The position numbers were made by a program, and so were the translations under genes. DNA of 64,000 bases from Thioalkalivibrio sp. AKL19 (GTDB taxonomy: Bacteria > Pseudomonadota > Gammaproteobacteria > Ectothiorhodospirales > Ectothiorhodospiraceae), in contig NZ_ATUK01000001.1 of assembly GCF_000420165.1 (NCBI RefSeq), positions 1-64,000 of the forward strand, read 5' to 3'. Under the pieces are notes generated by a model. It was given only the letters and a program-made list of their open reading frames with translations, was not told the DNA's origin and searched no databases. Each line of letters begins with the position of its first letter. Position 1 is the stretch's first letter. Positions 5,855-20,258 of this stretch are shown in pieces.

Positions 5855-5855
5855 G

Positions 5856-5882
5856 GCCCGGACACTGTAATCAGTACCGGGC
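5856..5882. terminator. Hairpin between convergent genes
   Basis: GCCCGG and CACTG pair with CAGT and CCGGGC around a TAAT loop, in the 29-base gap between the convergent phosphatase and STAS genes. It could stop transcription from both sides. No long T run follows, so the call rests on position and stem. Confidence 0.5.
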
Positions 5883-5883
5883 T

Positions 5884-6225
5884 TCAGTCCTCGCCGCGGG
5901 CGCGTGCCACGGCCACCGCCCGATCATCGCAGACGTCCAGGATCGACAGGAAGCCGCTGATCTCGAAGACCTCCCGGATCGGCTCATGAATCTCGCACAG
6001 CACCAGCTGACCATTCAGCTGCCGAACCTTCTTCGCCGCCATGAGCATGACCCGCAGCCCGGCACTGGAGATGTATTCCAGGTCGGCAAACCGGATCACC
6101 AGGGTGGGCGAATCGTCCAGAAGGGCGAGCAGTTCCGCCTCGAAAGCCGGCGACGTATTACTGTCCAGGCGCCCCTCGGGGCTCACCACGCATACGCCGT
6201 CCACCGTCTCTTTATTCAATTCCAT
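5884..6225 (-). CDS. STAS-domain anti-anti-sigma factor
   Basis: A 113-residue SpoIIAA/RsbV-type STAS protein: VVSPEGRLDSNTSPAFEAEL at the N-terminus, then LVIRFADLEYISSAGLRVML. Ser53 or Ser54 in the YISSAGL motif is the expected phosphorylation site. Such proteins sequester an anti-sigma kinase when unphosphorylated. The gene follows the HATPase kinase gene on the same strand with a 32-base gap and faces the SpoIIE phosphatase, so all three parts of a partner-switching circuit are adjacent. No sigma factor or other output protein is encoded in the neighbourhood. Confidence 0.92.
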   Translation of the reverse strand: MELNKETVDGVCVVSPEGRLDSNTSPAFEAELLALLDDSPTLVIRFADLEYISSAGLRVMLMAAKKVRQLNGQLVLCEIHEPIREVFEISGFLSILDVCDDRAVAVARARGED

Positions 6226-6257
6226 TACGTAATCGGGCCTTGTTGTTCAGTTCGTTG

Positions 6258-6665
6258 TCACTTGCGCTTGAGACGTCGCAGTCGAAGGCGATTCACTCCG
6301 TCGGCACTGTCGTACTGAATGTCGTCCATCAGCGTTCGGATGAAATACAGCCCCAGGCCTCCGATCGCGCGGTCCTCGACGCCTCCCTCCAGGGAGACCT
6401 TCGGTGCGTCCTCTAGCGGATGAAAGGAGTGGCCATCATCGGTCACCACGACCGTCAGGCCTTCGGTGTCCGCCTCGAGTTCCACACCAATCCGGTGCTC
6501 GCCGCCGTCATCGAAGGCGTAGGACACGAGATTGGTAATCCATTCATCGAGCGCGAGATTCACGGTGTTGGCTTCCATGCCGGCGCGCTCGCAGAACGCC
6601 TCGACTTCACCAGCGAGTCGAGGGATCTCCGTCAGTTCGTTACCAATATCGAGACTGCACCGCAC
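6258..6665 (-). CDS. HATPase_c anti-sigma regulatory factor (RsbW/SpoIIAB-like kinase)
   Basis: A 135-residue GHKL-type protein. The N box appears as LALDEWITNLVSYAFDDG, the G1 box as VVTDDGHSFHPLED and a Gly-rich segment as GGLGLYFIRTLMDDIQYD. Proteins of this family phosphorylate their STAS partner and bind a target such as a sigma factor. It is probably transcribed first in a two-gene operon with the STAS gene downstream. The CGLSLDIG-type N-terminus is short and has no transmembrane segment, so the protein is cytoplasmic. Confidence 0.9.
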   Translation of the reverse strand: MRCSLDIGNELTEIPRLAGEVEAFCERAGMEANTVNLALDEWITNLVSYAFDDGGEHRIGVELEADTEGLTVVVTDDGHSFHPLEDAPKVSLEGGVEDRAIGGLGLYFIRTLMDDIQYDSADGVNRLRLRRLKRK

Positions 6666-7036
6666 GCCGTCACTGGCCTCCGCTTGCTCGCATTTGTACC
6701 CAAAAGATCGCCGGAGCCCGCGTAGCCTTCTCGGACGCGGCGCTTACCTTTACAGGCGCAGGGTATAACACTCGGGTCGCCGACACATGCGCATGGGCCG
6801 GTCGGGTGAAATCCGAACTCTGTGATGATGCCAATCTCTCCCACGCGCGACCGCCATATGCTTCGTTTTTCGCTGTTCCGAACGGACCCCTGATCCCGCC
6901 TGCTGGCCGTTTTCCGTTTTGCGAGGGCATCCTCCGTCTCGCCGATGCTCGACACCCCGGGCGCTGACAGGTTTCAAGCGGAACGTATGGCGCGCCCGCC
7001 TTCCCGAGATGTGCTCTTAAGAGCGCCGAAGTCCGC
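6666..7036. other. Intergenic region without recognised gene
   Basis: No frame here has a recognisable protein or plausible start. The HATPase promoter should lie near its left end. A perfect 12-bp palindrome GCTCTTAAGAGC sits at about 7013-7024, just before the IS5-like scar. I see no RNA gene. Confidence 0.5.
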
Positions 7037-7175
7037 AGAACCGAAAGTCGCCCCTGTAACCGCCAAAAACGGCGGTTACAGGGGGTAAAACACGCCCCTG
7101 TGGCCCCAATGTCCTTCCCAAAACGCGTCGGTGGGAGATGGAGCCGGATTCGGGCCCATTGATCAGTGTTTCCTT
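7037..7175 (-). mobile_element. Remnant of IS5-family element (3' end only)
   Basis: The reverse complement of this segment matches 20109-20250, the noncoding end of the IS5-type element further right. The match includes a perfect 14-bp-stem palindrome (7051-7084; stem CCCCTGTAACCGCC) and the terminal inverted repeat GGAAACACTGATCAATGG next to CTA. No transposase sequence remains. It is an old solo end or deletion scar. Confidence 0.75.
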
Positions 7176-7378
7176 AGCGGCCAGGCTCGCGCCTGATCCT
7201 CCGTCTCGGTGCGGGTGCTCGCCGGAAGCGTGAGTTTTCCGTTAGTCGCATTGGGGCGAAATCTGAACTGAATCACAGTTTGTGTTCTGATACCGCTCGA
7301 AAGGCGCCTGGTTGGACACGGGCGATCATGACGTCGGGGCGGTCGTTGCGCGGTTCCGATCGACACGAGAGGTGATGG

Positions 7379-7768
7379 ATGGGACGGTTGGTACGATGGG
7401 CGTTGGTGGCTGCGGTTGGGATAGCCACGATGTCGGCGGGGATGGCCACGGCCGGCGAGGTTTCCGAGCTGCGACTCGAGAACCGCTCCAGTGAGGCACT
7501 GCAGGGGACCATTACGGTCCTGCACGGATCGGCGGATTATGAACAACGGCAGTTCAGCCTTGCCCCGGGTGCAAGCGAAGAGTTCGTCTGGGATGGCTGG
7601 TATGGGAACTACGCGTACGAACTGGACGGAGGGCGACTCAATTCGGTGCTGATGTCATTGCCTGGATATGCCTCCTACTACTCCAGTGAAGTCGAGATCA
7701 CCTGGTACGACGATCAGGGCGAGCTGAGCCACCGGGTCGAGTGCTCCAAGTCTTGCCGGTGGCCATGA
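7379..7768 (+). CDS. Small secreted protein with C-terminal Cys pair
   Basis: A 129-residue protein that I do not recognise. Residues 1-25 are a signal peptide ending GMATA-GEV. The mature part is rich in Ser, Tyr, Trp and Glu and ends with ECSKSCRWP, a Cys-x3-Cys tail that could form a disulfide. GAGAGGTG precedes the ATG. It is the first of a run of small exported proteins that lead into the tolC-MFP-ABC operon, so it may be cargo or a periplasmic accessory of that exporter. Function is unknown. Confidence 0.7.
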   Translation: MGRLVRWALVAAVGIATMSAGMATAGEVSELRLENRSSEALQGTITVLHGSADYEQRQFSLAPGASEEFVWDGWYGNYAYELDGGRLNSVLMSLPGYASYYSSEVEITWYDDQGELSHRVECSKSCRWP

Positions 7769-7796
7769 TCGAGGCCGTTTCGCGGCTGTAGTATGC

Positions 7797-7841
7797 GTGC
7801 AGGCAAACGTCTGCACGATCGAATGATACGAAATGATACGA
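7797..7841 (+). promoter_or_regulatory. Hairpin plus perfect 10-bp tandem repeat upstream of the secreted peptide gene
   Basis: GTGCAG and CTGCAC (7797-7816) can form a hairpin, followed at 7822-7841 by two perfect tandem copies of AATGATACGA. The position, 80-120 bases before the 93-residue peptide gene, suggests a regulator site or promoter. The role is inferred from position only. Confidence 0.35.
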
Positions 7842-7921
7842 GTGTGTGGCCGGTGAAATCCTCGCCGATCAAGAAGAAAGGCGAGCGGCCGTCTGTTGGG
7901 TTCGACAACTAGGAGAAAAAG

Positions 7922-8203
7922 ATGAAAAAGCGTTTGGCTACGATGATGCTGTTGGGTGGGGTGATGTTCGGCGCGACCGCGAACGCTTCTACGATTTGTG
8001 TGTGCGTGGGTATAGGAAGTGCCGGAGGTAGTTGTGGCAGCAACGCAATCGGGGCGAACTTCGGGCAGTATTTTGCCAATGTGAGCAACTCGGATCTGGA
8101 GTCGTACGTGCGCAAGCATCATGCCGACCGGCTCAGCAGTGGTGCCAGCAGTAGTGAATATTCGTCCGAAACCGGTTGGCTGTGCACCCGGGAACGACGT
8201 TAG
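7922..8203 (+). CDS. Small secreted Gly/Cys-rich peptide (93 aa)
   Basis: AGGAGAAAAAG precedes the ATG. Residues 1-22 form a clean Sec signal peptide (MKKRLATMMLLGGVMFGATA, with cleavage before STICV). The mature 70 residues begin with TICVCVGIGSAGGSCGSNAIG and contain four Cys (three near the N-terminus, one near the C-terminus in WLCTRERR). The middle is Ser/Asn rich. The gene ends only 24 bases before tolC, so it is probably the first gene of that operon. It matches no family I know; a small exported effector or bacteriocin-like peptide is possible but unproven. Confidence 0.7.
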   Translation: MKKRLATMMLLGGVMFGATANASTICVCVGIGSAGGSCGSNAIGANFGQYFANVSNSDLESYVRKHHADRLSSGASSSEYSSETGWLCTRERR

Positions 8204-8227
8204 GCCTCGGATCCAAACGAACCGCAC

Positions 8228-9790
8228 GTGTTAGGTGACACGCGAGGCTGGCCAGCATGCTGGGTCACAGGTGTGCTGGCCAGCTTGGCGTTTGCAGTGT
8301 CCGCATGGGTTCTGATGCCCACGGCCGCTGCTTCTGCAAGTAGTTTCAATGTCCACGAATACGAGCCTACCCCGCTGTCGGGCAGCGAGGTGGAATTGGG
8401 GCTGGCCGAGGCCATTGCCCTGGCCCTGCGGCGGAATACCCAGCTGCAAAGCGCGTACCTCGATCGCGTAGTCGATCAGCTGAATCTGGCGGTGGCCGAG
8501 GCGCAGTTTCGGCCCCGGGGTACGATCGTGTTGGGTGCACAGCAGAACCGCGCGCCCGGGGATGATGCCGAGACGCAGCGGTCGAGCACCCTCTCGCCGT
8601 CTCTGGATACCGCACTTCCGACGGGTGGCCGAATCGGTTTCAGCTGGAATCTTGACCAGGACCATGGCCTGGATGAGCCCGCCATCCAAACCTCGCGCAG
8701 CTCCCAACTTTCGCTGGACCTGAATCAGCCGTTGCTGCGCGGCGGCGGCCTGGCAGTGGGTCGGGCACCCCTCGAGATTGCCCGCTTGCAGGAAACCGCG
8801 AGTGCCCTGGGGCTGGAAGAGACGGTGGTCGGGACCATCGATAGCGTGATTGCGGCGTATCGCACGCTGTTGCAGGGGCAGCAGCGCCTGGAGATTGCGA
8901 AGGGTTCCCTGGAGCGCACCGTTGAACAGCTGGAACGCAATCGTGCGCTGGTGGAGCGAGGGCGGATGGCATCCAACGAACTGGTGCAGACCGAGTCGCG
9001 CCTGGCCAATCAGCGCTTCAGTGTCAGCCAGGCCGAAGACGCCGTGGATCAGTCTCGGCTGGAGCTCCTGCGCCTGCTCAACCTGGGGCGTGACACGCGT
9101 CTTCGTCTGCGTGACACGGTCGAGCTGGAGGCGCTTGAGAGCCTTCGCGTTCGATCCCCCTCGCTGGAAGCGGCAACATCGATTGCGCGTGACAACCGTC
9201 CGGATTATTTACGCCTGCGGATCGCGCGCGAGATCGAATCGATCGGGCAGATGCTGGCCGAGAATGAACACCTCTGGAGACTCGATCTGAACGCCTCGCT
9301 GGATGCCGGCGCGACCGGGCGAAGCGCTCGGCAGGCCACCGGTTCGACGCTGGACGAACGTCCGGGATATGCATTGGGGCTGGAGCTGGAGATCCCGATC
9401 CTGGATCCGGAGCGGCCGGTTCGACTGCTTGAATCCCGCATCCGCCTGCGGCAATCGGAAATCCAGTTCTCCGAACGAGAAGTCGAGCTGGAGCTGGAAG
9501 TGGAACGTTCCCTGAATGATCTGAACAGTCGCTGGCAACAGTTGGGCTTGGCGCAGCGCTCGCTGGAATTGGCGCGCGAAAGCCTGGAGATCGAGCGTGA
9601 GCGGCTGGCGGTGGGCCGGACGACGTCGTTCCAGGTCAATGCAACCGAACAAAACCTCCAGCAGGCCGAGCAGAGCTTGTTGGACGCCGTGATTGCGTAT
9701 CTGAATGCGCAGACTGCGCTGGACCGGGCGCTGGGGACCACGCTGGATAGCTGGGGGCTGTCGCTCCCTGAAGCGGGAGTGATGCCATGA
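8228..9790 (+). CDS. TolC-family outer membrane efflux protein
   Basis: A 520-residue outer membrane channel of the OEP/TolC family. The N-terminal hydrophobic stretch WVTGVLASLAFAVSAWVLMP is a signal peptide. GLAEAIALALRRNTQLQSAYL, SLDLNQPLLRGGGLAVGRAPL and LAVGRTTSFQVNATEQNLQQAE are characteristic. Long helical repeats follow the usual duplicated OEP layout. GTG is used as start. The stop overlaps the start of the PAS-MFP gene (ATGA), so the two are co-translated. A paralogue lies on the opposite strand at 16052-17623. It should form the outer membrane exit duct for the adjoining MFP and MacB-type permease. Confidence 0.92.
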   Translation: MLGDTRGWPACWVTGVLASLAFAVSAWVLMPTAAASASSFNVHEYEPTPLSGSEVELGLAEAIALALRRNTQLQSAYLDRVVDQLNLAVAEAQFRPRGTIVLGAQQNRAPGDDAETQRSSTLSPSLDTALPTGGRIGFSWNLDQDHGLDEPAIQTSRSSQLSLDLNQPLLRGGGLAVGRAPLEIARLQETASALGLEETVVGTIDSVIAAYRTLLQGQQRLEIAKGSLERTVEQLERNRALVERGRMASNELVQTESRLANQRFSVSQAEDAVDQSRLELLRLLNLGRDTRLRLRDTVELEALESLRVRSPSLEAATSIARDNRPDYLRLRIAREIESIGQMLAENEHLWRLDLNASLDAGATGRSARQATGSTLDERPGYALGLELEIPILDPERPVRLLESRIRLRQSEIQFSEREVELELEVERSLNDLNSRWQQLGLAQRSLELARESLEIERERLAVGRTTSFQVNATEQNLQQAEQSLLDAVIAYLNAQTALDRALGTTLDSWGLSLPEAGVMP

Positions 9791-11553
9791 GCGACAGTCG
9801 AGTTGTGTTGAGTCAGCAGATCCTGGATTCGATGGCGGATGGGGTGCTGGTCGTCGACGCCTCTGGTGCAATCACGACCTTGAATCCCGCCGGGGCGGCG
9901 ATTCTCGGTTTGCGGGCCGATGAGGCAGAAGGACGCAGCCTGGCCGAGGTGTTTATCGGAGAAGAGGGCTACGCAGCCTTTGTCGATGCATTGTTCGAGG
10001 CGGTCTATTCCGGTGTGATGCAGCCCGACCAGATGGTGTCCATCAGCGTGGGCGGGCACGTGCGTTCGCTGAAGTTGACCACCTCCTATCTGGCGCCCCG
10101 GCAAGCCGGGGGCGAACGCGCCGTGCTGGCGGTGTTTACGGATGTGACCGACCTGGAGCAGGCACGCCAGGCCGAGCAAAGCCTTTCCGATGAGCTGCGC
10201 GGCAAACACAAGGAACTGCAGGACGCCTTCCTGGAAATCGAGGCGAACAGCGAGGCCTTGCAGCAGGCGTACCGCCGTTCCGGCCGCATGCGGCTGATGA
10301 TGACGGCCGCCGTTGTGGCCGTGTTTGCGGGTGCTGGGTACTGGGCGATCCCGAACGCCGCGATGCCCGAATTTGGTGCCAGCGATGCCCAGGTCGTCGA
10401 TGCCACTCAGCCCGGAGCGTTCGAGGTGCAATCGCGCGCGGTGGAAACCACCACGAGCTTTTCCGGGCGGTTTCGTCCGGGCGATGTCATTACGCTGGTC
10501 AGTCCTTTCGAGTCCACGGTGGTGGCCCGCCACGTTGAGTATGGCGAGCGGGTGGATGAGGGTGATCTTCTGCTGGAACTCGATTCGACCGAGATCGATA
10601 TCCGCTATCGGCGTGCACGCAGCGACCTGGCGGATGCCGAGTCGGAGCTTGAGGACCTGGAGGACTGGGAGCAGGGCCGCGAGATGGCCAGTTCACGCCG
10701 CAGTCTGAGGCAGGCCGAACGCAATTTGAGTAATGATCAGCGCGAACTGGACGATGTCGAGCATCTATTCGAACGTGGCATCGTTCCCGAGCGCGAGTTG
10801 CGGGCGGCCCGGGAGCGAGTGGAAGAATCCCGAGTGCGGGTCGAGGCAGCCCGAGAAGACCTTGCGGAGACCTCGCGTCAGGGCGGTGAACGGGCGATTG
10901 CGCGGGCTCGCGTCGAGGTAGAGAACGCGCGCGCGGAGTATGAGCAGGTACGACGCCAGCGTGAGGGGGCCCGCGTATACGCCCCGGTCGATGGCGTCGT
11001 CCTGGCGCCCCTCGGCGAGGACCGGGATGACGGCGAGCGGGTAGAGGCTGGGGGGCGTGTGTCCAGTGGTGCCGCCCTGCTGGCGGTGGGCGACCTGTCT
11101 TCCCTGGAGATCGAAGGCACCGTTGATGAGCTGGATATCCATGACGTCCAGGCGGGCCAGTCGGCCCGGGTGAACGTGGTGCGAGGCGGGGGTGACCCGA
11201 TGCCGGCCCGGGTGTCCTATGTGTCTTCGCAAGCGCAGGAGGGGAGCGGACGAGGTCTGCCATCGTTCCGCCTGATCGTGCGTATTGATGACCTCGACGC
11301 CCAGGACCTGGACCGGATTCGGGTGGGGATGTCCGCCTCCGTGGATGTGATCACGCAGCAGGATCCGGATGCGGTGGTCGTGCCCCATGCCTTTCTGGGC
11401 GGGAGCGGGTCGGAGCGTTGGGTCCTGCGGCAGACATCCAACGGCTCCGAGCGGGTCGCCGTGGAACTCGGCCGGTCCCGATACGATGGGGTTCAGGTGC
11501 AGAGCGGCCTGGAACCCGGAGACCGGCTGTTGCCACCCGGGGGTGAAGGTTGA
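9787..11553 (+). CDS. PAS domain fused to membrane fusion protein (HlyD/MacA-type adaptor)
   Basis: A 588-residue protein of unusual design. Residues about 8-122 form a cytoplasmic PAS domain (QILDSMADGVLVVDASGAIT, TDVTDLEQARQAEQ). A coiled coil spans 122-164 and one transmembrane helix spans about 169-187 (MMTAAVVAVFAGAGYWAIP). The rest is a periplasmic adaptor: a lipoyl half-motif (VEYGERVDEGDLLLELDST), a long alpha-helical hairpin, the second lipoyl half (RVYAPVDGVVLAPLGEDRD) and beta-barrel and membrane-proximal domains to the C-terminus. It overlaps tolC at its start and the ABC ATPase at its stop. Known MacA/HlyD adaptors have only a short cytoplasmic end, so the PAS module suggests sensing of redox, ligand or energy state. 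Confidence 0.9.
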   Translation: MSDSRVVLSQQILDSMADGVLVVDASGAITTLNPAGAAILGLRADEAEGRSLAEVFIGEEGYAAFVDALFEAVYSGVMQPDQMVSISVGGHVRSLKLTTSYLAPRQAGGERAVLAVFTDVTDLEQARQAEQSLSDELRGKHKELQDAFLEIEANSEALQQAYRRSGRMRLMMTAAVVAVFAGAGYWAIPNAAMPEFGASDAQVVDATQPGAFEVQSRAVETTTSFSGRFRPGDVITLVSPFESTVVARHVEYGERVDEGDLLLELDSTEIDIRYRRARSDLADAESELEDLEDWEQGREMASSRRSLRQAERNLSNDQRELDDVEHLFERGIVPERELRAARERVEESRVRVEAAREDLAETSRQGGERAIARARVEVENARAEYEQVRRQREGARVYAPVDGVVLAPLGEDRDDGERVEAGGRVSSGAALLAVGDLSSLEIEGTVDELDIHDVQAGQSARVNVVRGGGDPMPARVSYVSSQAQEGSGRGLPSFRLIVRIDDLDAQDLDRIRVGMSASVDVITQQDPDAVVVPHAFLGGSGSERWVLRQTSNGSERVAVELGRSRYDGVQVQSGLEPGDRLLPPGGEG

Positions 11554-12251
11554 TGTCCGCGGCGCAACCGCTGGTTAGCCTGCAAGACGTCCATCGCTCC
11601 TATCGAGTCGGACCTACCGATGTGCACGTCCTGCGCGGAGTTCAACTCGAGATCCACCGGGGTGAGCTGGCCTCGCTGATGGGGGCTTCCGGCTCCGGCA
11701 AGTCCACGCTGATGAACATCATCGGGATGCTTGAACGCCCGTCTTCGGGTGATTTCTTTTTCGAGGGTCAGGACGTGCTGCAACTCGCGCCCGATGCCCT
11801 GGCGCATTACCGCAATCAGCAGATCGGTTTCGTCTTCCAGACCTTTCACTTGCTGCCGCGACTGACGGCCCTGGATAACGTGGGGCTGCCGCTGCTGTAT
11901 CAGGACGTGAGCAAGCGGGAGATGCGTCGCCGTGCGCGCGAGATCCTGGGTCGAGTCGGCATGGGTGATCGGGTCGATCATCGACCCAACGAGCTCTCCG
12001 GCGGCCAGCGCCAGCGGGTCGCGATTGCGCGTGCACTGGTGGGTAACCCTTCCGTGGTGTTGGCGGATGAGCCCACCGGCGCGCTGGATTCGAGTGTGGG
12101 CCGCGAGATCATGGATCTGTTCCACGAGCTCAACGGCGAAGGCGTGACCGTGGTGATCATCACCCACGACCCGGCCATCGCACGGGAGTGTCCCCGGCAA
12201 CTGGTCATCCGGGACGGTGTGGTCGCCGGCCCGGAGCAGGTGCCGGCATGA
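11553..12251 (+). CDS. ABC transporter ATPase (MacB/LolD type)
   Basis: A 232-residue ATPase. Walker A is GASGSGKSTLMN, the Q loop lies in FVFQTFHLLPRLTALDNV, the signature is LSGGQRQRVAIARAL, Walker B is VVLADEPTGALD and the switch His is in VIITHD. The SALD and PTGALDS features match the MacB/LolD/FtsE class that powers mechanotransmission-type exporters. The ATG overlaps the MFP stop (TGATG); a TTG codon immediately before it is a less likely start. The stop overlaps the permease start (ATGA). It energises export through the neighbouring permease. Confidence 0.95.
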   Translation: MSAAQPLVSLQDVHRSYRVGPTDVHVLRGVQLEIHRGELASLMGASGSGKSTLMNIIGMLERPSSGDFFFEGQDVLQLAPDALAHYRNQQIGFVFQTFHLLPRLTALDNVGLPLLYQDVSKREMRRRAREILGRVGMGDRVDHRPNELSGGQRQRVAIARALVGNPSVVLADEPTGALDSSVGREIMDLFHELNGEGVTVVIITHDPAIARECPRQLVIRDGVVAGPEQVPA

Positions 12252-13444
12252 GGTTGCGGATGCTCCTGGGCGAGGCGAGCCGCAATATTGTGGCGACCAA
12301 GCAGCGCTCCCTGCTGGCGCTACTGGGGATCGTGATCGGCACGGCCTCGGTCATCGCGATGCTGAATGTCGGGTCTATCATGCACAACGCGGTGCTGGAG
12401 CAGTTTCGCGCGATGGGGACCAATGTCATCAATATCCGACAGCGCTACGCCACGGATGAGGACGGCCCCGCGCGTAATCAGCTGGACCTTGCGCTGGCTC
12501 GGGCGTTGGGGCCGGCCCTACCGCAATTGATTCAAGTCGCGCCATTTGATGGGGCGAGTTCGGAACTGCGAGCGGGCGCGGAGACCCAGAATGTCCGGCT
12601 GACGGGGGCGACCGAGGCGTTACAGGGGCTCTTGCGGGTACGCCTGGCCGCCGGGCGCTGGGTCTCCGAGCTGGATGGGGTGGAGCTCCAGGGTGTGGTC
12701 GGTTCCGAGGTGGCATCCAGCTATGCCGCGCAAACCAACCAGCCACTGGAAGTGGGTGGCCGAGTGGGGCTGGGCGGCTACACCATGACGGTGGCCGGAA
12801 TCCTGGAGCCGTATCCACGAGGCGGCGGGGTGAGTCCGATCTCCCCGAACCGGACGATCTTTCTACCGATCGAAGCCTTGCAGCGTTTCGATGCCGATGA
12901 CGAGCTGGAAGGCATCCTGGCGCGTGTGCATCCACAGGCGGACCATCAGGAACTGGCGCGAACCATCGAGACCTGGGTGGAGGCGCGCGCCCCGGGGTTG
13001 CCCGTGGAGGTGAATAGCGCCGAACAGTTGCTGGCCAACATGGAGCAGCAAAGCCGCATGTTCACGATCATGCTGGGCGCGATCGGCAGTATTGCGCTCA
13101 TCGTGGGGGGCGTAGGGATCATGAACATCATGCTGGTATCGGTCACCGAGCGACGCAAGGAGATCGGCATTCGGCTTGCCATCGGGGCCCGCAATGCCGA
13201 CATCCGTCGCCAATTCCTGGTCGAGGCGGTCATGCTGTGTCTGCTGGGCGGTGTCATTGGGGCCGCGTTGGGAACCGGGGTGGCCATCGCCTTTGCCCAT
13301 TTCACTGGGAACGCGTTCGTGGCGGCACCCATGGCGGTACTGCTGGGCGTTTCCGTCTCCACGCTGACAGGGATTGCCTTCGGGTATTACCCCGCCCTGC
13401 AGGCCTCGCGGCTGGATCCGATCATCGCACTGCGTAGCGAGTAG
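12248..13444 (+). CDS. MacB-type ABC transporter permease
   Basis: A 398-residue permease with the MacB/FtsX layout. The first transmembrane helix is within QRSLLALLGIVIGTASVIAM, followed by a periplasmic MacB_PCD domain of about 220 residues. Three C-terminal helices follow (MLGAIGSIALIVGGVGIMNIMLVSV, MLCLLGGVIGAALGTGVAI, LLGVSVSTLTGIAFGYYP). ERRKEIGIRLAIGA is a typical coupling motif. Unlike E. coli MacB, the ATPase is a separate gene. Its 3' end overlaps the convergent Lnt-type gene by 23 bases. Confidence 0.93.
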   Translation: MRLRMLLGEASRNIVATKQRSLLALLGIVIGTASVIAMLNVGSIMHNAVLEQFRAMGTNVINIRQRYATDEDGPARNQLDLALARALGPALPQLIQVAPFDGASSELRAGAETQNVRLTGATEALQGLLRVRLAAGRWVSELDGVELQGVVGSEVASSYAAQTNQPLEVGGRVGLGGYTMTVAGILEPYPRGGGVSPISPNRTIFLPIEALQRFDADDELEGILARVHPQADHQELARTIETWVEARAPGLPVEVNSAEQLLANMEQQSRMFTIMLGAIGSIALIVGGVGIMNIMLVSVTERRKEIGIRLAIGARNADIRRQFLVEAVMLCLLGGVIGAALGTGVAIAFAHFTGNAFVAAPMAVLLGVSVSTLTGIAFGYYPALQASRLDPIIALRSE

Positions 13445-15002
13445 AGCGTCCCAGCCGGCGCCAGCCACGATAGAGGCTGGCCAGCAGGACCAGCACGGCC
13501 AGGCCCTGAAGGAAGCGGTCGCCATGGCGTTGGTAGAAAGGGCGCTCCGCCACGGTGTGGACCACGAGGCTTTGGGTTGTGCTCCGCCACTGAGGCGTCT
13601 CGCTACCTGGCACCACTCGGCCCGTCGCGTCGAAGACAGCGCCGCCTCCGGTGTTGTGCAGCATGACCAACGGACTGCGGTTCTCCAGGCTGCGTGCGCG
13701 GGCGATGGCCCGGTGCGCATCAGCGGCGCGCGGCGAACCGAACCAGGCGTGATTGCTGATGTTCACGATGATCCCCGCTTGCTCCGACAGGTTCTCGCGC
13801 ACGAGGTTGGCGAACAGACTCTCGAAACAGATCGTCGGGGCCAGGTGCACCCCGTCGGGCCCGGTCAGGGACTGTTCCGCCTGTCCCGGGCTGAAGCGTG
13901 AGGCCTGTGGCAGGCGCTCGCGTAGCCAGGGTAGTTGCGCTTCGAACGGCAGGTATTCGCCGAATGGCACGAGCTTGCGTTTGCGGTAGGTCCCGGACAG
14001 GCCGGCCCCGGGCTCGAACAGTAGGGCGACGTTGTGAGTGCCATGGCCCGGGTCATCCCGGTGCTCGGTCCCGTTGACCAGGATGGGTACCCCGATCTCG
14101 TCGGCCAGGGCGGCAAGGGCGCGATGCCCCCAGGATTTCGGAGCCGCCTGAAGTGTCATGGCCGCCTCGGGCCAGATCACCAGATCCAGATCCGGGTCGA
14201 TCTTGTGCAAGTCTCGAGTCTGCGCAATGGCGGTATCGATGTCGTTGTTTCGATCGGCCATCGGCATGTCGTCGCGCCGCACATGTACCGGGATATTGGG
14301 CTGTACCAGGCCCAACCGGGTGCTGTGTTCCGGAGCTGCCCGTTCCAGTGTATCCAGGCGCAGGCTCCCGTAGGCCAGCAGGGTCACCACCAGCAAGCCG
14401 AGCAGTACTGGCGCTACTGGGGTGAGCGTGTGGCGACTCACCGCGATCAGCATACTGGCGGCGAGAAAGCCGATCGAGGTCGAGAAAAAGAGCAGCAGGG
14501 GCATGCCGCCGACATCGACGACTTGTGCCAGCAGGGGGTGTGCGAGCAGGGCGTAGGCAAAATGTCCGGGAACGACCTGCGGCGAGAAGGACAGGGCCAC
14601 CGTCAGCAGTCCCGCTGCGAGCAGGGCCTCAGCGGGACGTTCCAGGCGCAGCGCAAGTGCGGCGACTGCACCGGAGAACAGCGCGTAGGGTACTGCGTGC
14701 AGCACCGCCAGCCCCAGCACCATCAGGCTGCCAAGGGTCCATGGGAAGCCGAGCCAAGCTTCGGTGCCGGATACGACCCATCCGAGCGATGGCAGCCAGT
14801 AGCCCAGGCCCGCCAGAAGGCCGGCCGCAGCGGATGCGCCGATGGTCAGGCCCTGCAAGGCGAGCCCCAGAAGGGCAATGGATATCAGGACGAAGGCCCC
14901 GGGCAGGGGGGCCTCCGGGAAACTCAGGTGAAAGAGAACCGCGGAACCTGCCAGCAGGCCCGCACGCGCGAGTACGGACAGAGCGGACCGCTGGATCACC
15001 AA
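13422..15002 (-). CDS. lnt: Apolipoprotein N-acyltransferase-type membrane protein
   Basis: A 526-residue protein with an N-terminal block of about seven membrane helices and a nitrilase (CN_hydrolase) domain from about residue 228. The catalytic triad expected for Lnt is present: Glu279 in DLVIWPEAAM, Lys343 in YRKRKLVPFGEYL and Cys392 in APTICFESL. Lnt adds the third acyl chain to lipoproteins in the inner membrane. This copy is not in the usual corC/ybeX context but is last in an operon with tolC2 and two secreted proteins. It could be the cell's only Lnt or a specialised second copy. The secreted neighbours have no lipobox Cys. Confidence 0.85.
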   Translation of the reverse strand: MVIQRSALSVLARAGLLAGSAVLFHLSFPEAPLPGAFVLISIALLGLALQGLTIGASAAAGLLAGLGYWLPSLGWVVSGTEAWLGFPWTLGSLMVLGLAVLHAVPYALFSGAVAALALRLERPAEALLAAGLLTVALSFSPQVVPGHFAYALLAHPLLAQVVDVGGMPLLLFFSTSIGFLAASMLIAVSRHTLTPVAPVLLGLLVVTLLAYGSLRLDTLERAAPEHSTRLGLVQPNIPVHVRRDDMPMADRNNDIDTAIAQTRDLHKIDPDLDLVIWPEAAMTLQAAPKSWGHRALAALADEIGVPILVNGTEHRDDPGHGTHNVALLFEPGAGLSGTYRKRKLVPFGEYLPFEAQLPWLRERLPQASRFSPGQAEQSLTGPDGVHLAPTICFESLFANLVRENLSEQAGIIVNISNHAWFGSPRAADAHRAIARARSLENRSPLVMLHNTGGGAVFDATGRVVPGSETPQWRSTTQSLVVHTVAERPFYQRHGDRFLQGLAVLVLLASLYRGWRRLGRSTRYAVR

Positions 15003-15039
15003 TGCCGTAACGGTGGGTGTGCCGCAGCTGCTTGGTGGA

Positions 15040-15438
15040 TTAGCGGATGCCGAGGCGGTTCGGACAGCCGCCGCCGCTGTAGTTGATCTCGGTGATCTCG
15101 ACCTGACCGGAGACTACGTGAACCTCCGAACGGTGGCTGAAATCCAGCCGCTTGCTCTCGCCTTCGCGCCACTGTTCCCGGTCGCGGGCTTCGAGTGTGT
15201 GACTTTCGGTGTGCAAGTCCATTGCGTATCCCTGCAGGGTGCTGTCGGCAAGCCCGCGGAATCCGATGCACCCGGTGGCGAAGATTTGCGTGGCGAAGAG
15301 CTGTACGCTGTCGCCGCTGCGCAGGACGTCCCCTTCATCGGCGGAGCTGCCCCCACTTGAGGCTACCGCAGAGGAGAGGGTCACCGAGGCGAGCGAAAGC
15401 ACGACCGCAGTGGTGAGCAGGCGAGAAACTGGATTCAT
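15040..15438 (-). CDS. Secreted two-Cys protein, paralogue 1
   Basis: A 132-residue protein starting at the ATG of MNPVSRLLTTAVVLSLASVTL, with a Sec signal ending near SSAVAS. It is a clear paralogue of the next gene: both contain TGC(I/M)xxRGL(A/S)DSxxQGY, REQWREGESKR or the equivalent, SGxVEITEIN and a C-terminal SGGGCPxRLG. Two conserved Cys probably form a disulfide. I recognise no known family. It lies 38 bases before lnt and 50 bases after its paralogue, so it is part of the tolC2 operon. Confidence 0.75.
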   Translation of the reverse strand: MNPVSRLLTTAVVLSLASVTLSSAVASSGGSSADEGDVLRSGDSVQLFATQIFATGCIGFRGLADSTLQGYAMDLHTESHTLEARDREQWREGESKRLDFSHRSEVHVVSGQVEITEINYSGGGCPNRLGIR

Positions 15439-15487
15439 TGCGGATACCGGGTTGGGGTGGGGGTGCTGGTTTGCCCTGCCGTGGCCA

Positions 15488-15889
15488 TCAGCCGACGCGC
15501 AGTCCGAGACGATCGGGGCAGCCCCCGCCGCTACGATTGATCTCGGTGATCTCCACGGAGCCAGAGAGCACCATGATTGCCGAGTTACGGAAGTCGAACC
15601 GTTTCGTCTCGCCTTCGCGCCAGCGCTCCCGACCGCGTTCCTCGGTCGAATTGCCCCCACGGTAGGACTCGATGATCTGATATCCCTGCACTTCGCTGTC
15701 GCTCAGGCCCCGCAGTTCCATGCAGCCGGTGGAGCCGATCAAGGCCTGCATGCGGGTTTGGTCCCCCGCGCGCAGCTCGTCACCTACATTGGCGGTGCTG
15801 GTGCTCGAGGCCAGGCTGGATCCCGAGGTGGCCACCAGGGCCGATGTCACGCTCAGCAATAGGGCGCGTCGTATCGGTTGAGGAATCAT
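15488..15889 (-). CDS. Secreted two-Cys protein, paralogue 2
   Basis: A 133-residue protein with the signal peptide IRRALLLSVTSALVATSGSSLAS. It aligns with the preceding product over most of its length: GDELRAGDQT, STGCMELRGLSDSEVQGYQI, RERWREGETKRFDF, SGSVEITEINRSGGGCP. The strict conservation of both Cys, the REGE motif and the VEITEIN strand between divergent copies argues for a real folded domain. It lies 163 bases downstream of tolC2. Likely periplasmic or exported; function unknown. Confidence 0.75.
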   Translation of the reverse strand: MIPQPIRRALLLSVTSALVATSGSSLASSTSTANVGDELRAGDQTRMQALIGSTGCMELRGLSDSEVQGYQIIESYRGGNSTEERGRERWREGETKRFDFRNSAIMVLSGSVEITEINRSGGGCPDRLGLRVG

Positions 15890-16051
15890 TTGGACGTGGC
15901 CTCCGTGCTTGTTCGCCGTTGAATGCGCGCCAGCCTAGCACGGGCAGTGCCGACACCTTGATATAGCGTTAGTCCAGCGTAAGGTGAGGTGTTTTGGGCG
16001 GGAATGAAGCCTCCGTGTCTACGCCGTGATGACCGGGCCACGATGCGGACC

Positions 16052-17623
16052 TCAATCGATGTACGCGGAGGTGTCTGTTGTCCTTGATGGGATCGCCAGA
16101 TCCCAGCGTTCGAGCACGATGCCCATAGCGCGATCCAGGTCGGTCTGGGCGTTCTGGTAGTTGATGGCGGCATCCAGCAATGACTGCTCCGCCTCCCGGA
16201 GCTGGCGCTCCACGCTTTCGACCTCGAACCCAGAGGAACGCCCGACTGCGAGCTTTTCCTGCTCGATAGCCACAGCCTGTTGTGCCAGATCCAGCGCTTG
16301 TTCGGCCAGATGGAGTTGATCCCGCCGGCTCTCCAGCGCCCCAAGGGCGCGTTCGACCTCAATGCGGATGGATGTTCGGAGTTCCTGGGTCCGCAGGCGC
16401 GCCTGACGCTGCTCCACCCGTGCCGCGCCAAGGCGTTGTTGACGCGTGTGCCGATCTCCCCAGGGGATGCTGAGGCGCAGGCCCAGGGAGTGGCCAGGAG
16501 ACTCTTCGAAGCCGCGCTCGATGGCACGAGTGGTGGACGGACTATCGCCCCGCAGTTCGACCGAGGCGGTCACATCCAGTTGCCAACGGTTGGCGTCCTC
16601 GGCCAGCGTTCGATCGAGAGCGGTCAGCCGTTGCGTGACCAGAGATTGGCGAAATTCCGGACTCCGATCCAGTGCCGTATCCATCGCGCTTTCGAGGGGG
16701 GGTGTCTCGGCGAGGAGTCCGTCAATGTCGTGGACATCAATCGCGTCCCGCGGCTCGATCTCCACCCCGGGTTCCAGCCCAATCAGTCGAATCAGATCGA
16801 GCTCGGCCTGATCCCGGCGCTCCTGGGTCTGCGCCTGCTGTAGCTCTTGACGCGCAAGGCTCTCGCGCGCCGGGGCCAGATCCGCCGCCGCCAGCCGACC
16901 GCGTTCCACCAGCTCCGTCCGGTTTTCCAGCTCTTGGCGACTTCTTTCCAGTGCGAGCTCGGCGAGTTCGACCCGCTGGTTTTCCAGGATCAGGTTGCGG
17001 TAGGCCTGAATTACCTGGGCAAGGGTGCTGATGACCTGTGACTCCAGGGCCAGTACGTTCTGTTCCTCGTTCAGGTGCGCCCGTTCCACCGGCGCCCGGC
17101 CAATCTCCAGACCCCCACCGCGCAATAGCGGTTGCGTGATGTCCAGCGTGACTGCGGAGGCGCTGTCTGGCGTGGTGTCGGGCGCGTCGGATTGGAGTAC
17201 CCGTTCGATCCGCCAGTTCAGGCCCGCCTGCGCGCCGGTGGGAAGCGCGAGGCTGGCACTTGGGTTGACGCTTGCGGTGCGCGTCCGCACGCCGTTCGCG
17301 CCCGCTGTACGCTGCTCGCGAGCCTGAAGCGTCACGGCGCTCCGGGGGTTAAAGGCCTGATTGGCCAGATCCAGATTGGCCCGGTCGACCACACGGCCCA
17401 GGTACGCGCCGCGCAGCGACGGATTGCGGGCAAGCGCGACCTGCAAGGTCTCGCGCAACGTCAGGCGCAGGGGCGCGCTCCCGGCTCGCATGCGCGATTC
17501 AATTGCGGAGTCGGCCGCCGCGACCACGCGGTCCGGGTCGCCAGGGTTCCCCGGGTCAGCCGCAGCGGGCGTCACCAGGACCAGGAGGCAGCTGAAGAGG
17601 GCAGGATGTTTGAACAAACGCAT
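16052..17623 (-). CDS. TolC-family outer membrane efflux protein, second copy
   Basis: A 523-residue OEP/TolC protein starting at the ATG of MRLFKHPALFSCLLVLVTPAAAD, which gives a proper signal peptide; an upstream in-frame ATG gives an implausible extension. Family features are LRETLQVALARNPSLRGAYL, LDITQPLLRGGGLEIGRAPV and LAVGRSSGFEVESVERQLRE. It is clearly paralogous to the product at 8228-9790 and convergent to it, 6 kb away. It leads the operon tolC2, two secreted paralogues, lnt. It may be the alternative outer membrane duct for the same PAS-MFP/MacB pump. Confidence 0.92.
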   Translation of the reverse strand: MRLFKHPALFSCLLVLVTPAAADPGNPGDPDRVVAAADSAIESRMRAGSAPLRLTLRETLQVALARNPSLRGAYLGRVVDRANLDLANQAFNPRSAVTLQAREQRTAGANGVRTRTASVNPSASLALPTGAQAGLNWRIERVLQSDAPDTTPDSASAVTLDITQPLLRGGGLEIGRAPVERAHLNEEQNVLALESQVISTLAQVIQAYRNLILENQRVELAELALERSRQELENRTELVERGRLAAADLAPARESLARQELQQAQTQERRDQAELDLIRLIGLEPGVEIEPRDAIDVHDIDGLLAETPPLESAMDTALDRSPEFRQSLVTQRLTALDRTLAEDANRWQLDVTASVELRGDSPSTTRAIERGFEESPGHSLGLRLSIPWGDRHTRQQRLGAARVEQRQARLRTQELRTSIRIEVERALGALESRRDQLHLAEQALDLAQQAVAIEQEKLAVGRSSGFEVESVERQLREAEQSLLDAAINYQNAQTDLDRAMGIVLERWDLAIPSRTTDTSAYID

Positions 17624-18026
17624 GGCTGGCGGGAGGGGAGCGCAATCTCGATCAGCGGGTGAGTTTCCGGCGACCGCCCGCAAACCTGCGCGCCACCCCA
17701 TGCAGGCAGTATCCCAAGCCAACCCTTATGCAGTAAAGCTGAGGCTCGGCCGGCCGCAGGGGTGCCGGCGTTGACCATCATCGGGAATGGATCCCGATCC
17801 TCATCAGGAAACGGCGACACGAGTGGAGCTCCCGGCCGTAGATGCCCTCTGCACCTACTTCAATCGCCAGGTGGGTGATCTCTTTGAGCATTTACCTGAG
17901 GGTGGTGGAGTAGGGTGGGAATTTGGACACAGCGCCAGGAAGTCATCCCGTTGCCTCGTCCGAGGCACCATGGCGCGTAGCGGCACAGGTTGGTCACAGA
18001 ATTGGTCACAGGACTTCCGAAGCCAC
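17624..18026. other. Intergenic region before tolC2
   Basis: No gene is seen. It should hold the promoter of the tolC2 operon; see the candidate at 17708-17737. The right end borders the tRNA-Arg-derived direct repeat. Short tandem phrases (TTGGTCACAG, ATTGGTCACAGG) occur at about 17990-18012. Confidence 0.5.
17708..17737 (-). promoter_or_regulatory. Candidate promoter of tolC2 operon
   Basis: On the minus strand TTTACT is followed after 18 bases by GATACT, about 85 bases before the tolC2 start. The match to a sigma-70 promoter is partial and the call is tentative. Confidence 0.3.
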
Positions 18027-18307
18027 AAACGAAAAAGGGACCAGCGACTGTAAGTTACTGATCCCTTTCTCTGGAATATGGCGCGCCCGGAAGGATAGCG
18101 GCGACGCGGCGCGTCTTGCCCTTCCGGGTGTCGGCCTGGGGCCGACACGTACCTCGCTGCGCTCGGGATCGAACCGATTGTTGAACGGAGGTTCGAATCC
18201 TTTGTGCTAGCAGGAACGAGAGAGGGCACCCGGATGTGGATGCCCTCTCTCTGGAACATGGCGCGCCCGGAAGGATTCGAACCTCCGACCACCTGGTTCG
18301 AAGCCAG
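18027..18307. repeat. 281-bp direct repeat, left copy (tRNA-Arg derived)
   Basis: Nearly identical, without gaps, to 21434-21714. It contains a short tRNA acceptor-end fragment (GGCGCGCCCGGAAGGA, from 18080), a hairpin GTGTCGGCC/GGCCGACAC, a tRNA T-arm-like stretch in the opposite orientation near 18190, the hairpin AGAGAGGGCA/TGCCCTCTCT and the 3' 49 bases of a tRNA-Arg. The two copies bracket a 3.1-kb decayed island. Confidence 0.85.
18259..18307 (-). pseudogene. tRNA-Arg 3' fragment
   Basis: The 3' 49 bases including encoded CCA match the intact tRNA-Arg at 21666-21742, but the sequence diverges immediately 5' of the anticodon stem, so no 5' half exists. In the anticodon triplet the base corresponding to A34 is T, so this came from or drifted toward a UCG-reading tRNA. 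It cannot fold as a tRNA. Confidence 0.8.
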
Positions 18308-18671
18308 AAATAGCCATGCGTCAGGAAGCAGGCTAAAGCGATCTCAAGTGGGACTGCGGTACCCCGATAGTAACGTAACCGATGGAAAATTGGACCGCCC
18401 TTGTTTTTGAGGTGTGACAAATAAGAACGGAAGCCGCCGACTCCGGTGTCACGCGGCCGAAGCGAGGGCGGTGCGTCGTGGATACTGGTGTCACAGGGGG
18501 TTTCCCGCCCAAACGAGTATCTAGCGCCTGCCGGAGACGAACCGATCGAGCATGATGTGGAGCTGTCTGGACTGGAGGTGAGCCGACTGAGAGCATCCTA
18601 TCTGGTCGCTCCAAACTGCTTGTGGCTAGCAAGCCATCCATCGCCGAACCCAGGCCAAAAGGTAATAAGCC
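18308..18671. other. Noncoding stretch inside decayed island
   Basis: No supported gene, RNA or repeat is seen. It lies between the tRNA fragment and the broken PhyH gene. Confidence 0.4.
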
Positions 18672-19405
18672 GTGTCCTCAGTCAGCTGGGCCGTCAAGCG
18701 CGCGTTGGCCATGGGCCACGGGCTCCTCATGGCTCCGGTTTGGAGCCCTCGAGTAATCACTGGCGAGAAAACTCTCCGTACGAACAAGGTCCTCGGTAAC
18801 CGGTGGTTGAATGAACGCGGTCTGCACCGATGGCGCGTCCGGGTAGCCGATAGTCTTGCGCGTCAGCGTCACCGCGGACTTGGCCGAAAGGTCTCAGCGG
18901 ATCAGATCGAAGCGTTCGAGCGCGGCGGGTATATCCTGATTCACGATTTTCTGGCTCGCGAAGAGTATCGCTCATCGTGAACGAAATCATGAATCGTCCC
19001 CTGCCGTCGGCAGAGCGGCGTGAGGGTATGGCGGTCACTCGGCGATTGTCTCTCGAGCCGTCCGAGCTGACGGAACATCCGGGGCTCGTGCGCTCATTCG
19101 CGGTCGATCGCTTGTGTCCCCTCTACGATATGTCTCGTCTTTCGGGGGAGAGCCGTTGTTCCAGTTGCAGACCGTGTTTGTGCAGCCTGGAAGCTTACCG
19201 GCTCCAGACCCGCAAACCGACCTGCACAAGGATACGTTTCATGCGACCGCCAAGGCGTGGCTGTGTCTCACGCCGGTAAGTGAGGCGGACGGCCCGCTCC
19301 GCTATGTGCCCGGATCCCATCGGTTGACGCCGGAACGCAGTGTTGCGCTGTCCGAATCCGGGGGCAGGGGAGCCTTCCGGATTCGCGAGGACGAGCCGCC
19401 CGCTT
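18672..19405 (+). pseudogene. Phytanoyl-CoA dioxygenase (PhyH) family gene, frameshifted and truncated
   Basis: Parts of one PhyH-type Fe(II)/2-oxoglutarate oxygenase occur in three frames: LGRKVSADQIEAFERGGYILIHDFL to about 18970, then RLSLEPSELTEHPGLVRSF to about 19140, then FQLQTVFVQPGSLPAPDPQTDLHKDTFHATAKAWLCL and DGPLRYVPGSHRLTPE. The HKD portion would be the metal-binding motif. Two frameshifts and loss of the C-terminus, which runs into the convergent neighbour, make it inactive. Confidence 0.75.
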
Positions 19406-19416
19406 GCCTTAGTGTT

Positions 19417-19941
19417 TCAGGGCCACGGAAACATCCGCATCGGGCGAGACATCTCGCCGGTATCCCGAGTTATCCAGTAAACGGACTCGTTTATTCCGTG
19501 CATCTGGCCGTTCAGAATCTGCATGCGTTCGTCCATGGAAACCACGGCCTGGCTCATAACGTCCAAGCGCTGGCTCATCAGATCCAGCGTGGGGGGAATG
19601 GACGTCACGTCCTGCTGCATCGCAGTAATACTCGTGCTGATCGTGTCCATCTCGGACCGTATCACCGTTATGTCGTTTCCTACTGACGACATGACGGTGG
19701 CCATCTGTCCAGTATCGCTTTGCATTCCCTCTATGTGCTGAATCATCCCGGACAGGCCCTGTGCCAACATAATCATCAGGGTGGCATGGCCGGCAATTAG
19801 CAGGACTACGATGACCAGCGACCAACGCGCAAGCTGGGCCGTTCGATGTGTGACACGCTTCCCTTCCTGATATTGATACTCGGCGCCCTTACGGAATTCG
19901 CCGATTGCCTCTTCAAGCCGCCTTACAATATCGTCATTCAC
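19417..19941 (-). CDS. Membrane-anchored coiled-coil protein of unknown function
   Basis: A 174-residue protein. The GTG start is chosen because GGGAG precedes it by nine bases; a GTG five codons upstream is possible. The N-terminus is a short amphipathic helix (IVRRLEEAIGEFRKGAEYQYQEGKRV), followed by one transmembrane helix (SLVIVVLLIAGHATLMIMLAQGL) and a long heptad-like coiled coil full of Met and Ser (MSQRLDVMSQAVVSMDERMQ), ending with PMRMFPWP. It resembles conserved proteins of sulfur- and nitrogen-oxidising bacteria of unknown role that look like truncated chemoreceptors. It is the only apparently intact gene in the tRNA-Arg island. Confidence 0.7.
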   Translation of the reverse strand: MNDDIVRRLEEAIGEFRKGAEYQYQEGKRVTHRTAQLARWSLVIVVLLIAGHATLMIMLAQGLSGMIQHIEGMQSDTGQMATVMSSVGNDITVIRSEMDTISTSITAMQQDVTSIPPTLDLMSQRLDVMSQAVVSMDERMQILNGQMHGINESVYWITRDTGEMSRPMRMFPWP

Positions 19942-20201
19942 TGGGTGTACTCCCACCCGGGGGGCTCAATCCCGAGCAACTGATCATCCTTTCCAAATCC
20001 ACCGGCCTTCCAGTCATTCGATTAATCTCCATTGATCCGATCTGTGCGCTCTGCGGTTAGGCAGACGCTGACTTAATCGCGCGTTCGCGCTTGAGTCGAT
20101 TTTGCGTGCTAAGAAAACGCTGATCAATGGCCCTGCATCCGGCTCCATGTCCCGCCGAAGTGTTTTTGGAAGGACATCGGGGCCACGGTGGCCTGTTTTA
20201 C

Positions 20202-20235: not shown

Positions 20236-20258
20236 CGATTTCCGGTCCTGCGGGTACA

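What the first reader, a model, noticed from the sequence alone, without database searches (positions are those of the whole stretch)
7379..17623. Candidate undescribed export system: two convergent operons with two TolCs, PAS-adaptor, MacB pump, Lnt and small Cys-containing secreted proteins
The plus operon (small secreted peptides, TolC, PAS-MFP, ABC ATPase, permease) has 4-base overlaps between its pump genes. The minus operon (TolC2, two paralogous secreted proteins, Lnt-type enzyme) faces it and overlaps by 23 bases. Four small proteins with signal peptides and paired Cys are encoded with the machinery. I know of no described system with this set. A possible reading: periplasmic small proteins are modified or folded and then pumped out through TolC by a MacB-type mechanotransmitter under PAS control.
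Basis: partly seen in the sequence, partly recalled or inferred. Interest (0 to 1): 0.75.

Follow-up and report, generated by a model that had tools for sequence, protein, structure and literature searches.

The report
Aat-like acylate-and-export cassette in Thioalkalivibrio
A ten-gene cassette in a soda-lake-type sulfur bacterium carries a MacB-type export pump, a spare lipoprotein-acylating enzyme and small secreted cysteine-bearing proteins, and it most resembles the Aat system that fatty-acylates a small protein and then pumps it to the cell surface.

Summary
In detail: two convergent gene sets (window 7379-17623) encode four small secreted proteins, two TolCs, a PAS-fused adaptor, a MacB/LolD-type ATPase, a MacB-type permease and an Lnt paralogue. 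All ten recur in G024 (95% DNA), and nine of ten (not P0002) in G025 (38-80% protein identity), in the same order and with the same 23-base permease/Lnt overlap. The three copies lie at different genomic places, so this is a coherent, mobile unit.

"No described system with this set" is not right. The Aat system (AatPABCD + Aap/CexE; eLife 2021) has the same core parts and a tested mechanism: Sec export, N-terminal acylation by an Lnt homologue, then MacB-type export through a TolC-like duct. My best reading is an Aat-like system outside the enteric pathogens.

It differs in having PAS on the adaptor, a second TolC, candidate substrates with no detected sequence relatives, and predicted Ser rather than invariant Gly at the mature +1 of S1/S2. 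Orthology to Aat genes was not shown. Seventeen exporter relatives opened elsewhere lack Lnt and the second TolC; nine of them have a small secreted multi-Cys protein nearby, a borderline enrichment. One has GAF in place of PAS.

The parts
7379..7768 (+). P0001, small Sec-type secreted protein (129 aa), C-terminal Cys pair; candidate substrate
   Evidence: three orthologues, both Cys and the terminal WP invariant; dN/dS 0.18 (G024) and 0.48 (G025); no family hit above cut-off (15, 16)
7922..8203 (+). P0002, small Sec-type secreted protein (93 aa), four mature Cys; optional member
   Evidence: 87% in G024, not found in G025
8228..9790 (+). TolC1, outer-membrane duct; the TolC closer to those of the wider exporter family
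   Evidence: Pfam OEP 2.7e-35; outscores TolC2 at 17 of 17 related loci
9787..11553 (+). PAS-MFP: N-terminal PAS (10-119), linker, one hydrophobic segment (about 169-190, by eye), HlyD/MacA-type adaptor
11550..12251 (+). ABC ATPase, MacB/LolD type (start TTG 11550 or ATG 11553)
12248..13444 (+). MacB-type permease (MacB_PCD + FtsX), 4-base overlap with the ATPase
13422..15002 (-). Lnt2, Lnt-type N-acyltransferase; E279, K341, E349 and C392 kept in three of three copies
   Evidence: a second Lnt at G000:C10
15040..15438 (-). S1, secreted two-Cys beta protein; predicted mature start Ser, Ser or Gly, Gly, Gly, Ser; candidate acylated substrate
15488..15889 (-). S2, paralogue of S1; predicted mature start Ser
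16052..17623 (-). TolC2, second outer-membrane duct, 39-40% identical to TolC1 (ORF open to 17722; likely start ATG 17623)
7184..17802 (.). Extent of the cassette shared with G024 at 95% DNA identity; flanks differ

Best explanation
An Aat-like acylate-and-export system. Small proteins (S1, S2, probably P0001 and P0002) are exported by Sec, cut by signal peptidase I, and fold as disulfide-bearing proteins in the periplasm. Lnt2 attaches an acyl chain to the new N-terminal amine of S1 and/or S2 (predicted +1 Ser, or Gly if the cut lies one or two residues later in S1). The MacB-type permease and ATPase then lift the acylated protein from the outer face of the inner membrane and drive it by mechanotransmission through the adaptor and a TolC to the cell surface or medium. 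The cytoplasmic PAS domain of the adaptor gates or tunes the pump. Shown here: the gene content, conservation, likely secretion signals, intact catalytic residues and changed genomic places. Inferred: acylation, disulfides, the identity of the substrates, surface display and PAS gating.
For: - The core parts match AatP/AatA/AatB/AatC/AatD plus Aap/CexE (component roles from PMC7943197).
- Lnt2 keeps the four residues that the paper reports as needed in AatD and Lnt.
- Lnt2 is a second Lnt in its genome, 33% identical to the other over the matched part.
- No ORF of 40 aa or more in 7101-17802 has a lipobox-type signal by my scan, so no classical lipoprotein client lies in the cassette; CexE also lacks a lipobox.
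- S1's predicted first five residues are a Ser/Gly mix in three of three copies, the feature the paper reports for Aap/CexE.
- The block is kept in three genomes at three places.
- Two-step export of a Sec-exported, disulfide-bonded small protein by MacAB-TolC is established (passages of PMC5985334).
- Nine of 17 related exporter loci outside Thioalkalivibrio have a small secreted multi-Cys protein nearby.
Against: - The invariant N-terminal Gly of Aap/CexE is not met: the best predicted +1 residue is Ser in S1 and S2 (6 of 6), and G, D or A in P0001.
- The small proteins show no detected sequence link to a known family.
- 17 of 17 related exporters outside Thioalkalivibrio have no Lnt in the stretches fetched.
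- Neighbour enrichment over controls is borderline: p from 0.01 to 0.13 by how loci are labelled.
- Lnt2 passes the canonical Lnt cut-off, so it could be an ordinary Lnt.
- AatD sequences were not fetched, so no tree places Lnt2 with AatD.
Confidence: 0.55

Rival explanations
1. A MacAB/STII-type two-step exporter of unmodified disulfide-bonded small proteins. Lnt2 is an extra Lnt that serves ordinary lipoproteins (for example under alkaline stress) or other clients, and only happens to travel with it.
For: Nine of 17 exporter loci without any Lnt in the fetched stretch carry small secreted 2-6-Cys proteins. One such neighbour (L096, 91 aa) matches the LCI fold in Pfam at 2.5e-9. Lnt2 passes the canonical Lnt cut-off. 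Extra lnt genes travel on plasmids elsewhere.
Against: In three of three copies Lnt2 sits directly downstream of S1 and S2, overlaps the permease by the same 23 bases, and a second Lnt exists in the window's genome.
Confidence: 0.25
2. An efflux or envelope-lipid pump (MacAB- or DevBCA-like) for small molecules. The small secreted proteins are periplasmic helpers or sensors and not cargo.
For: MacB-family pumps also move antibiotics, siderophores and glycolipids (passages of PMC5985334). Four relatives from one unnamed genus (L093, L094, L115, L116) carry the four pump genes with no small secreted multi-Cys neighbour after two antisense ORFs are set aside.
Against: Three or four small secreted proteins per cassette and their retention with the pump in three genomes.
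Confidence: 0.15
3. A bacteriocin-like system: the small proteins are antagonistic toxins released by the pump, and one of the paired paralogues or Lnt2 gives self-protection.
For: Patchy distribution at changed places (3 of 30 genus genomes); LCI-fold neighbour in a relative (that the LCI founder is an antimicrobial peptide is recalled).
Against: No sequence link of S1, S2, P0001 or P0002 to a bacteriocin family; no immunity gene recognised.
Confidence: 0.05

Closest known systems
Aat secretion system / 'lipoprotein secretion system' (AatPABCD with Aap or CexE, Enterobacterales)
   Same: Sec-exported small protein, Lnt-homologue acyltransferase with the same four active-site residues, LolD/MacB-related ATPase and permease as separate genes, adaptor, TolC-type duct, on plasmids or islands (PMC7943197)
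   Different: Convergent two-operon layout, PAS-fused adaptor, second TolC, up to four candidate substrates with no detected sequence link, +1 Ser in S1/S2 and not invariant Gly, not an enteric host. None of the 26 plasmid records matched by the adaptor is from Escherichia, Shigella, Salmonella, Yersinia or Providencia
MacAB-TolC exporting enterotoxin STII
   Same: MacB-type permease, adaptor and TolC; periplasmic disulfide-bonded protein as cargo (PMC5985334 passages)
   Different: ATPase and permease are separate genes here; dedicated small-protein and Lnt genes; PAS on the adaptor
LitOPAI of Legionella pneumophila
   Same: MacAB-like four-gene exporter with separate ATPase and permease, gene order duct, adaptor, ATPase, permease as in the plus set (passages of PMC11559062)
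   Different: Substrate unknown; neighbours are predicted nucleotide-modifying enzymes; no Lnt or small secreted protein in the passages seen
Unnamed plasmid and chromosomal ABC-permease-TolC-HlyD clusters (L093-L100, L108-L116)
   Same: The same four pump genes (31-38% permease identity in the eight aligned); nine of 17 with small secreted multi-Cys neighbours
   Different: No Lnt, one TolC each and no match to the PAS part in 17 of 17; L095 has a GAF domain in place of PAS; L112 has broken pump genes
Apolipoprotein N-acyltransferase Lnt with Lol trafficking
   Same: Lnt2 family and active site; LolD-like ATPase
   Different: No lipobox protein in the cassette by my scan; the permease is MacB-type and encoded with an adaptor and TolCs

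Membership tests
Aat / lipoprotein secretion system | MacB/Lol-type ATPase and permease, adaptor and TolC-type duct encoded together | tested here: met
Aat / lipoprotein secretion system | Lnt-homologue acyltransferase with intact E-K-E-C residues beside the exporter | tested here: met
Aat / lipoprotein secretion system | Acyltransferase falls in the AatD clade, not the Lnt clade | not tested
   AatD sequences were not fetched; Lnt2 passes the canonical Lnt cut-off
Aat / lipoprotein secretion system | Small Sec-exported substrate without a lipobox | tested here: met
   (heuristic signal-peptide and lipobox scans; that these proteins are substrates is not shown)
Aat / lipoprotein secretion system | Invariant N-terminal Gly after signal-peptide cleavage | tested here: not met
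   best predicted +1 is Ser in S1 and S2, 6 of 6; G, D or A in P0001; a cut one or two residues later would give Gly in S1 only
Aat / lipoprotein secretion system | First five mature residues a Gly/Ser mix | tested here: inconclusive
   met for S1 in 3 of 3; S2 has Ser plus Thr, Asn, Gly or Val; P0001 no
Aat / lipoprotein secretion system | Substrate homologous to Aap/CexE | tested here: inconclusive
   no Pfam, NCBIfam or PDB sequence hit that would link them; Aap and CexE themselves share only 18%
Aat / lipoprotein secretion system | Substrate is acylated and secreted | not testable with these tools
   needs mass spectrometry and secretome
MacAB-TolC tripartite pump | Permease with MacB periplasmic core and FtsX-type C-terminus, HlyD/MacA adaptor, TolC duct | tested here: met
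MacAB-TolC tripartite pump | ATPase fused to permease as in MacB | tested here: not met
   separate genes 11550-12251 and 12248-13444
Canonical lipoprotein pathway | Lipobox protein as client in the locus | tested here: not met
   (heuristic scan of 7101-17802)
Lpt (LptA-like) proteins for S1/S2 | Sequence-profile similarity to LptA | tested here: inconclusive
   two hits at E about 0.007 per genome among 369 genomes, both lptA of one genus; hhalign probability 1%, score 12.0, above 37 of 37 column shuffles (best 11.1) and a reversed control (1.0)

The most novel reading that the evidence does not exclude
Acyl-dependent secretion is not confined to enteric pathogens. Thioalkalivibrio carries an independently assembled version in which an Lnt paralogue acylates small secreted proteins on an N-terminal serine (or Ser/Gly) rather than glycine, and the export pump is gated from the cytoplasm by a PAS domain built into the adaptor. 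PAS in this cassette and GAF in a relative would make a wider class of sensor-gated tripartite exporters.
Probability: 0.3. Interest if true: 0.75.

Novelty: new variant of a known kind. Interest (0 to 1): 0.57.

Why it matters
AatD-type acyltransferases have been described as restricted to pathogens of the Enterobacterales (passages of PMC7478709). A sulfur bacterium with the same logic would suggest that acylating a small protein before MacB-type export is a general strategy, and would free its study from virulence biology. It would also test whether Lnt-type enzymes can acylate residues other than Cys and Gly. The sensory domain fused to the adaptor (PAS here, GAF in L095) would give a handle on how tripartite pumps are switched.

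Tried and rejected
S1/S2 as LptA-like proteins. The class-wide profile search gave two weak hits that were lptA genes. Profile-profile comparison with 20 LptA-type rows (L076 left out) gave probability 1% and score 12.0; this is just above the best of 37 scored column shuffles of 40 (11.1) and well above a reversed control (1.0). No LptA chain is among the fold rows shown, which proves nothing. Set aside as unsupported, not excluded.

Terminal repeats. No inverted repeat of 11 bases or more and no direct repeat of 10 or more between 200-base stretches at the cassette ends; the transfer mechanism is unknown.

Enrichment of small secreted multi-Cys neighbours. By the script alone 14 of 19 family loci and 3 of 12 controls have one within about 3 kb (two of 14 controls dropped because no exporter gene was found) (p 0.011). 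By hand I removed two antisense ORFs (L094, L116) and one membrane protein (L099), kept L114, whose protein lies about 2.8 kb away behind three tandem genes, and first counted 2 of 12 controls, leaving out a 226-aa neighbour of L119: 11 of 19 versus 2 of 12, p 0.027; one per lineage 8 of 12, p 0.018. Counting L119 gives p 0.077 and 0.050; dropping L114 too gives 0.126 and 0.107. Without the two Thioalkalivibrio loci: 9 of 17, p 0.053 or 0.131; one per lineage 7 of 11, p 0.029 or 0.074. Only two controls (L117, L118) match all pump genes, and L097 and L100 are cut short by a contig or record end. Suggestive only.

Plasmid Lnt genes. Tblastn of Lnt2 matched 288 plasmid records, none with one place covering 80% of the query; 40 best and 60 spread rows were seen. 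Of five loci opened, four have lnt beside lspA and metal genes, one (L131) has lnt beside metal genes with no lspA annotated: another context.

Other searches. Relatives of S1/S2 in viral contigs: none. Plasmids: none for S2 or P0001. Rfam: none at gathering score in 6500-20500.

AatD was not fetched for a tree, because the copies described lie on virulence plasmids or islands of enteric pathogens; the AatD-clade test is left open.
Full report
WHAT IS THERE. The window comes from a genome of the same held genus as G024. The contig of G024 that holds the cassette has the same length (118,084) as a contig of Thioalkalivibrio sp. ALJ7 returned by the genome scan, so the genus is taken to be Thioalkalivibrio. 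The plus set is P0001, P0002, TolC1, PAS-MFP, ABC ATPase and MacB-type permease. The minus set is TolC2, S2, S1 and Lnt2. Domain assignments rest on Pfam and NCBIfam. The pump genes overlap by 4 bases at two junctions; the third is 1 or 4 depending on the start codon. Permease and Lnt2 overlap tail to tail by 23 bases in three of three copies.

IT IS A UNIT. Of 58 genomes searched (own included), 50 have some match to the PAS-MFP, since PAS and adaptor domains are common, but only 3 match along its length: the window's genome, G024 and G025. S1/S2 occur in the same 3 of 30 genus genomes, and the permease at E<=1e-60 in the same 3 of 47 order genomes. In an even draw of 369 class genomes the PAS-MFP at E<=1e-45 and Lnt2 at E<=1e-75 were found in 1 each, the window's own; G024 and G025 would have matched and were evidently not drawn. 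The genome-contig scan with S1/S2 returned one locus, ALJ7.

In G024 the block is 95% identical in DNA over 7184-17802, while the window's left flank (5700-6841) lies on another G024 contig; an RpoD-type sigma gene and a tRNA-Met lie near its copy. In G025 the block, without P0002, lies between a ribonucleotide-reductase gene and an ADI/DDAH-type gene. Substitution patterns show constraint: dN/dS 0.03 to 0.48 over 19 comparisons.

THE SMALL PROTEINS. All four have Sec-type signals by a simple scan, and no ORF in the cassette has a lipobox by another. S1 and S2 have two invariant Cys in six of six sequences. Their mature part is predicted, mostly with good confidence, as a beta jelly roll. The most likely cleavage leaves Ser at +1 in S1 and S2, six of six; S1 then reads Ser, Ser or Gly, Gly, Gly, Ser.

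LNT2. It is an Lnt-type enzyme with E279, K341, E349 and C392 kept in three of three copies (matching to the E. coli numbering is by the alignment and the spacing given). Its genome has a second Lnt, 33% identical over the matched part, beside a gene that I read by eye as CorC-like and so take as the housekeeping copy.

CLOSEST KNOWN SYSTEM. In PMC7943197 (sections read) the Lnt homologue AatD acylates the N-terminal Gly of the Sec-exported CexE, and AatPABC, related to LolCDE, MacB, MacA and TolC, exports it. The four active-site residues found here are the ones shown to be needed there. Passages of PMC7478709 call AatD restricted to Enterobacterales pathogens. Passages of PMC5985334 describe two-step export of disulfide-bonded STII by MacAB-TolC, list AatP as a MacB-family exporter, and report that the N-terminus of the DevB adaptor is needed for export. 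Passages of PMC11559062 describe LitOPAI, a MacAB-like exporter with the same duct-adaptor-ATPase-permease order and an unknown substrate. The window's set therefore works, most likely, like Aat. It is not shown to be an Aat member: the invariant Gly is not met, no sequence link to Aap/CexE was found, and the AatD clade was not tested.

WIDER EXPORTER FAMILY. The adaptor profile found 7 further genomes of 337 searched, the same seven of 339 with a family profile, and tblastn found 26 plasmid records, many with a part of the adaptor only. I opened all 7 genomes and 10 of the 26 plasmid records; with the window and G025 that makes 19 loci. The 17 outside Thioalkalivibrio have no Lnt, S1/S2 or P0001/P0002 relative in the stretch fetched, one TolC each, and no match to the PAS part. 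TolC1 outscores TolC2 at 17 of 17, so TolC2 looks like the addition. Nine of the 17 have a small secreted multi-Cys protein close by, mostly unrelated to each other in sequence. One in L096 matches the LCI fold. The enrichment over 12 controls is borderline. L095 has the order secreted protein (339 aa), TolC, GAF-adaptor, ATPase, permease, so at least two kinds of sensory domain occur on such adaptors.

VERDICT. The proposed mechanism is plausible and already has a precedent. The new points are the host, the PAS-fused adaptor, the second TolC, candidate substrates without known relatives and a possible change of the acylated residue. Searches of the held library showed no report of this cassette (listings only); subscription papers are mostly not covered.

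Noticed in passing
window 18022-18307 and 21430-21714: A direct repeat of about 286 bases (95%) whose second copy overlaps tRNA-Arg (21666-21742, minus strand); matches to its 49-50-base end are listed in at least a dozen genus genomes (capped list). Looks like an integration-site duplication around 18.3-21.7 kb.
   Followed up: partly
window 7033-7178 and 20108-21254: A repeat fragment just left of the cassette matches 20108-20253 and copies elsewhere in the genus; a DDE-type transposase gene lies at 20532-21254.
   Followed up: partly
window 3851-6665: Sensor-HAMP-SpoIIE phosphatase, STAS and RsbW-like kinase genes: a partner-switch module that is beside the cassette in this genome but not in G024 or G025.
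   Followed up: no
L096 13353-13628: A 91-aa secreted two-Cys protein matching the Pfam LCI fold (2.5e-9), divergent from a related ABC-permease-TolC-adaptor set.
   Followed up: partly
L095 9011-10921 and 12930-14855: Adaptor protein with an N-terminal GAF domain, same gene order as the window's pump genes, followed by a GAF-GGDEF protein.
   Followed up: partly
L114 1511-3945: Three tandem 252-aa paralogues (76-79% identical) without a clear signal peptide upstream of TolC in an Azospirillum plasmid; possible cargo.
   Followed up: no
L132, L133, L134, L135: Plasmid-borne lspA and lnt side by side near metal-transport genes in Halomonas, Vibrio, Pseudomonas and Pseudosulfitobacter; why such plasmids carry lipoprotein enzymes is unclear.
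   Followed up: no
L118 4060-4470 and 10545-11496: A control locus also has three small secreted proteins around a full pump set, two of them looking like paralogues, with 0-1 Cys.
   Followed up: no
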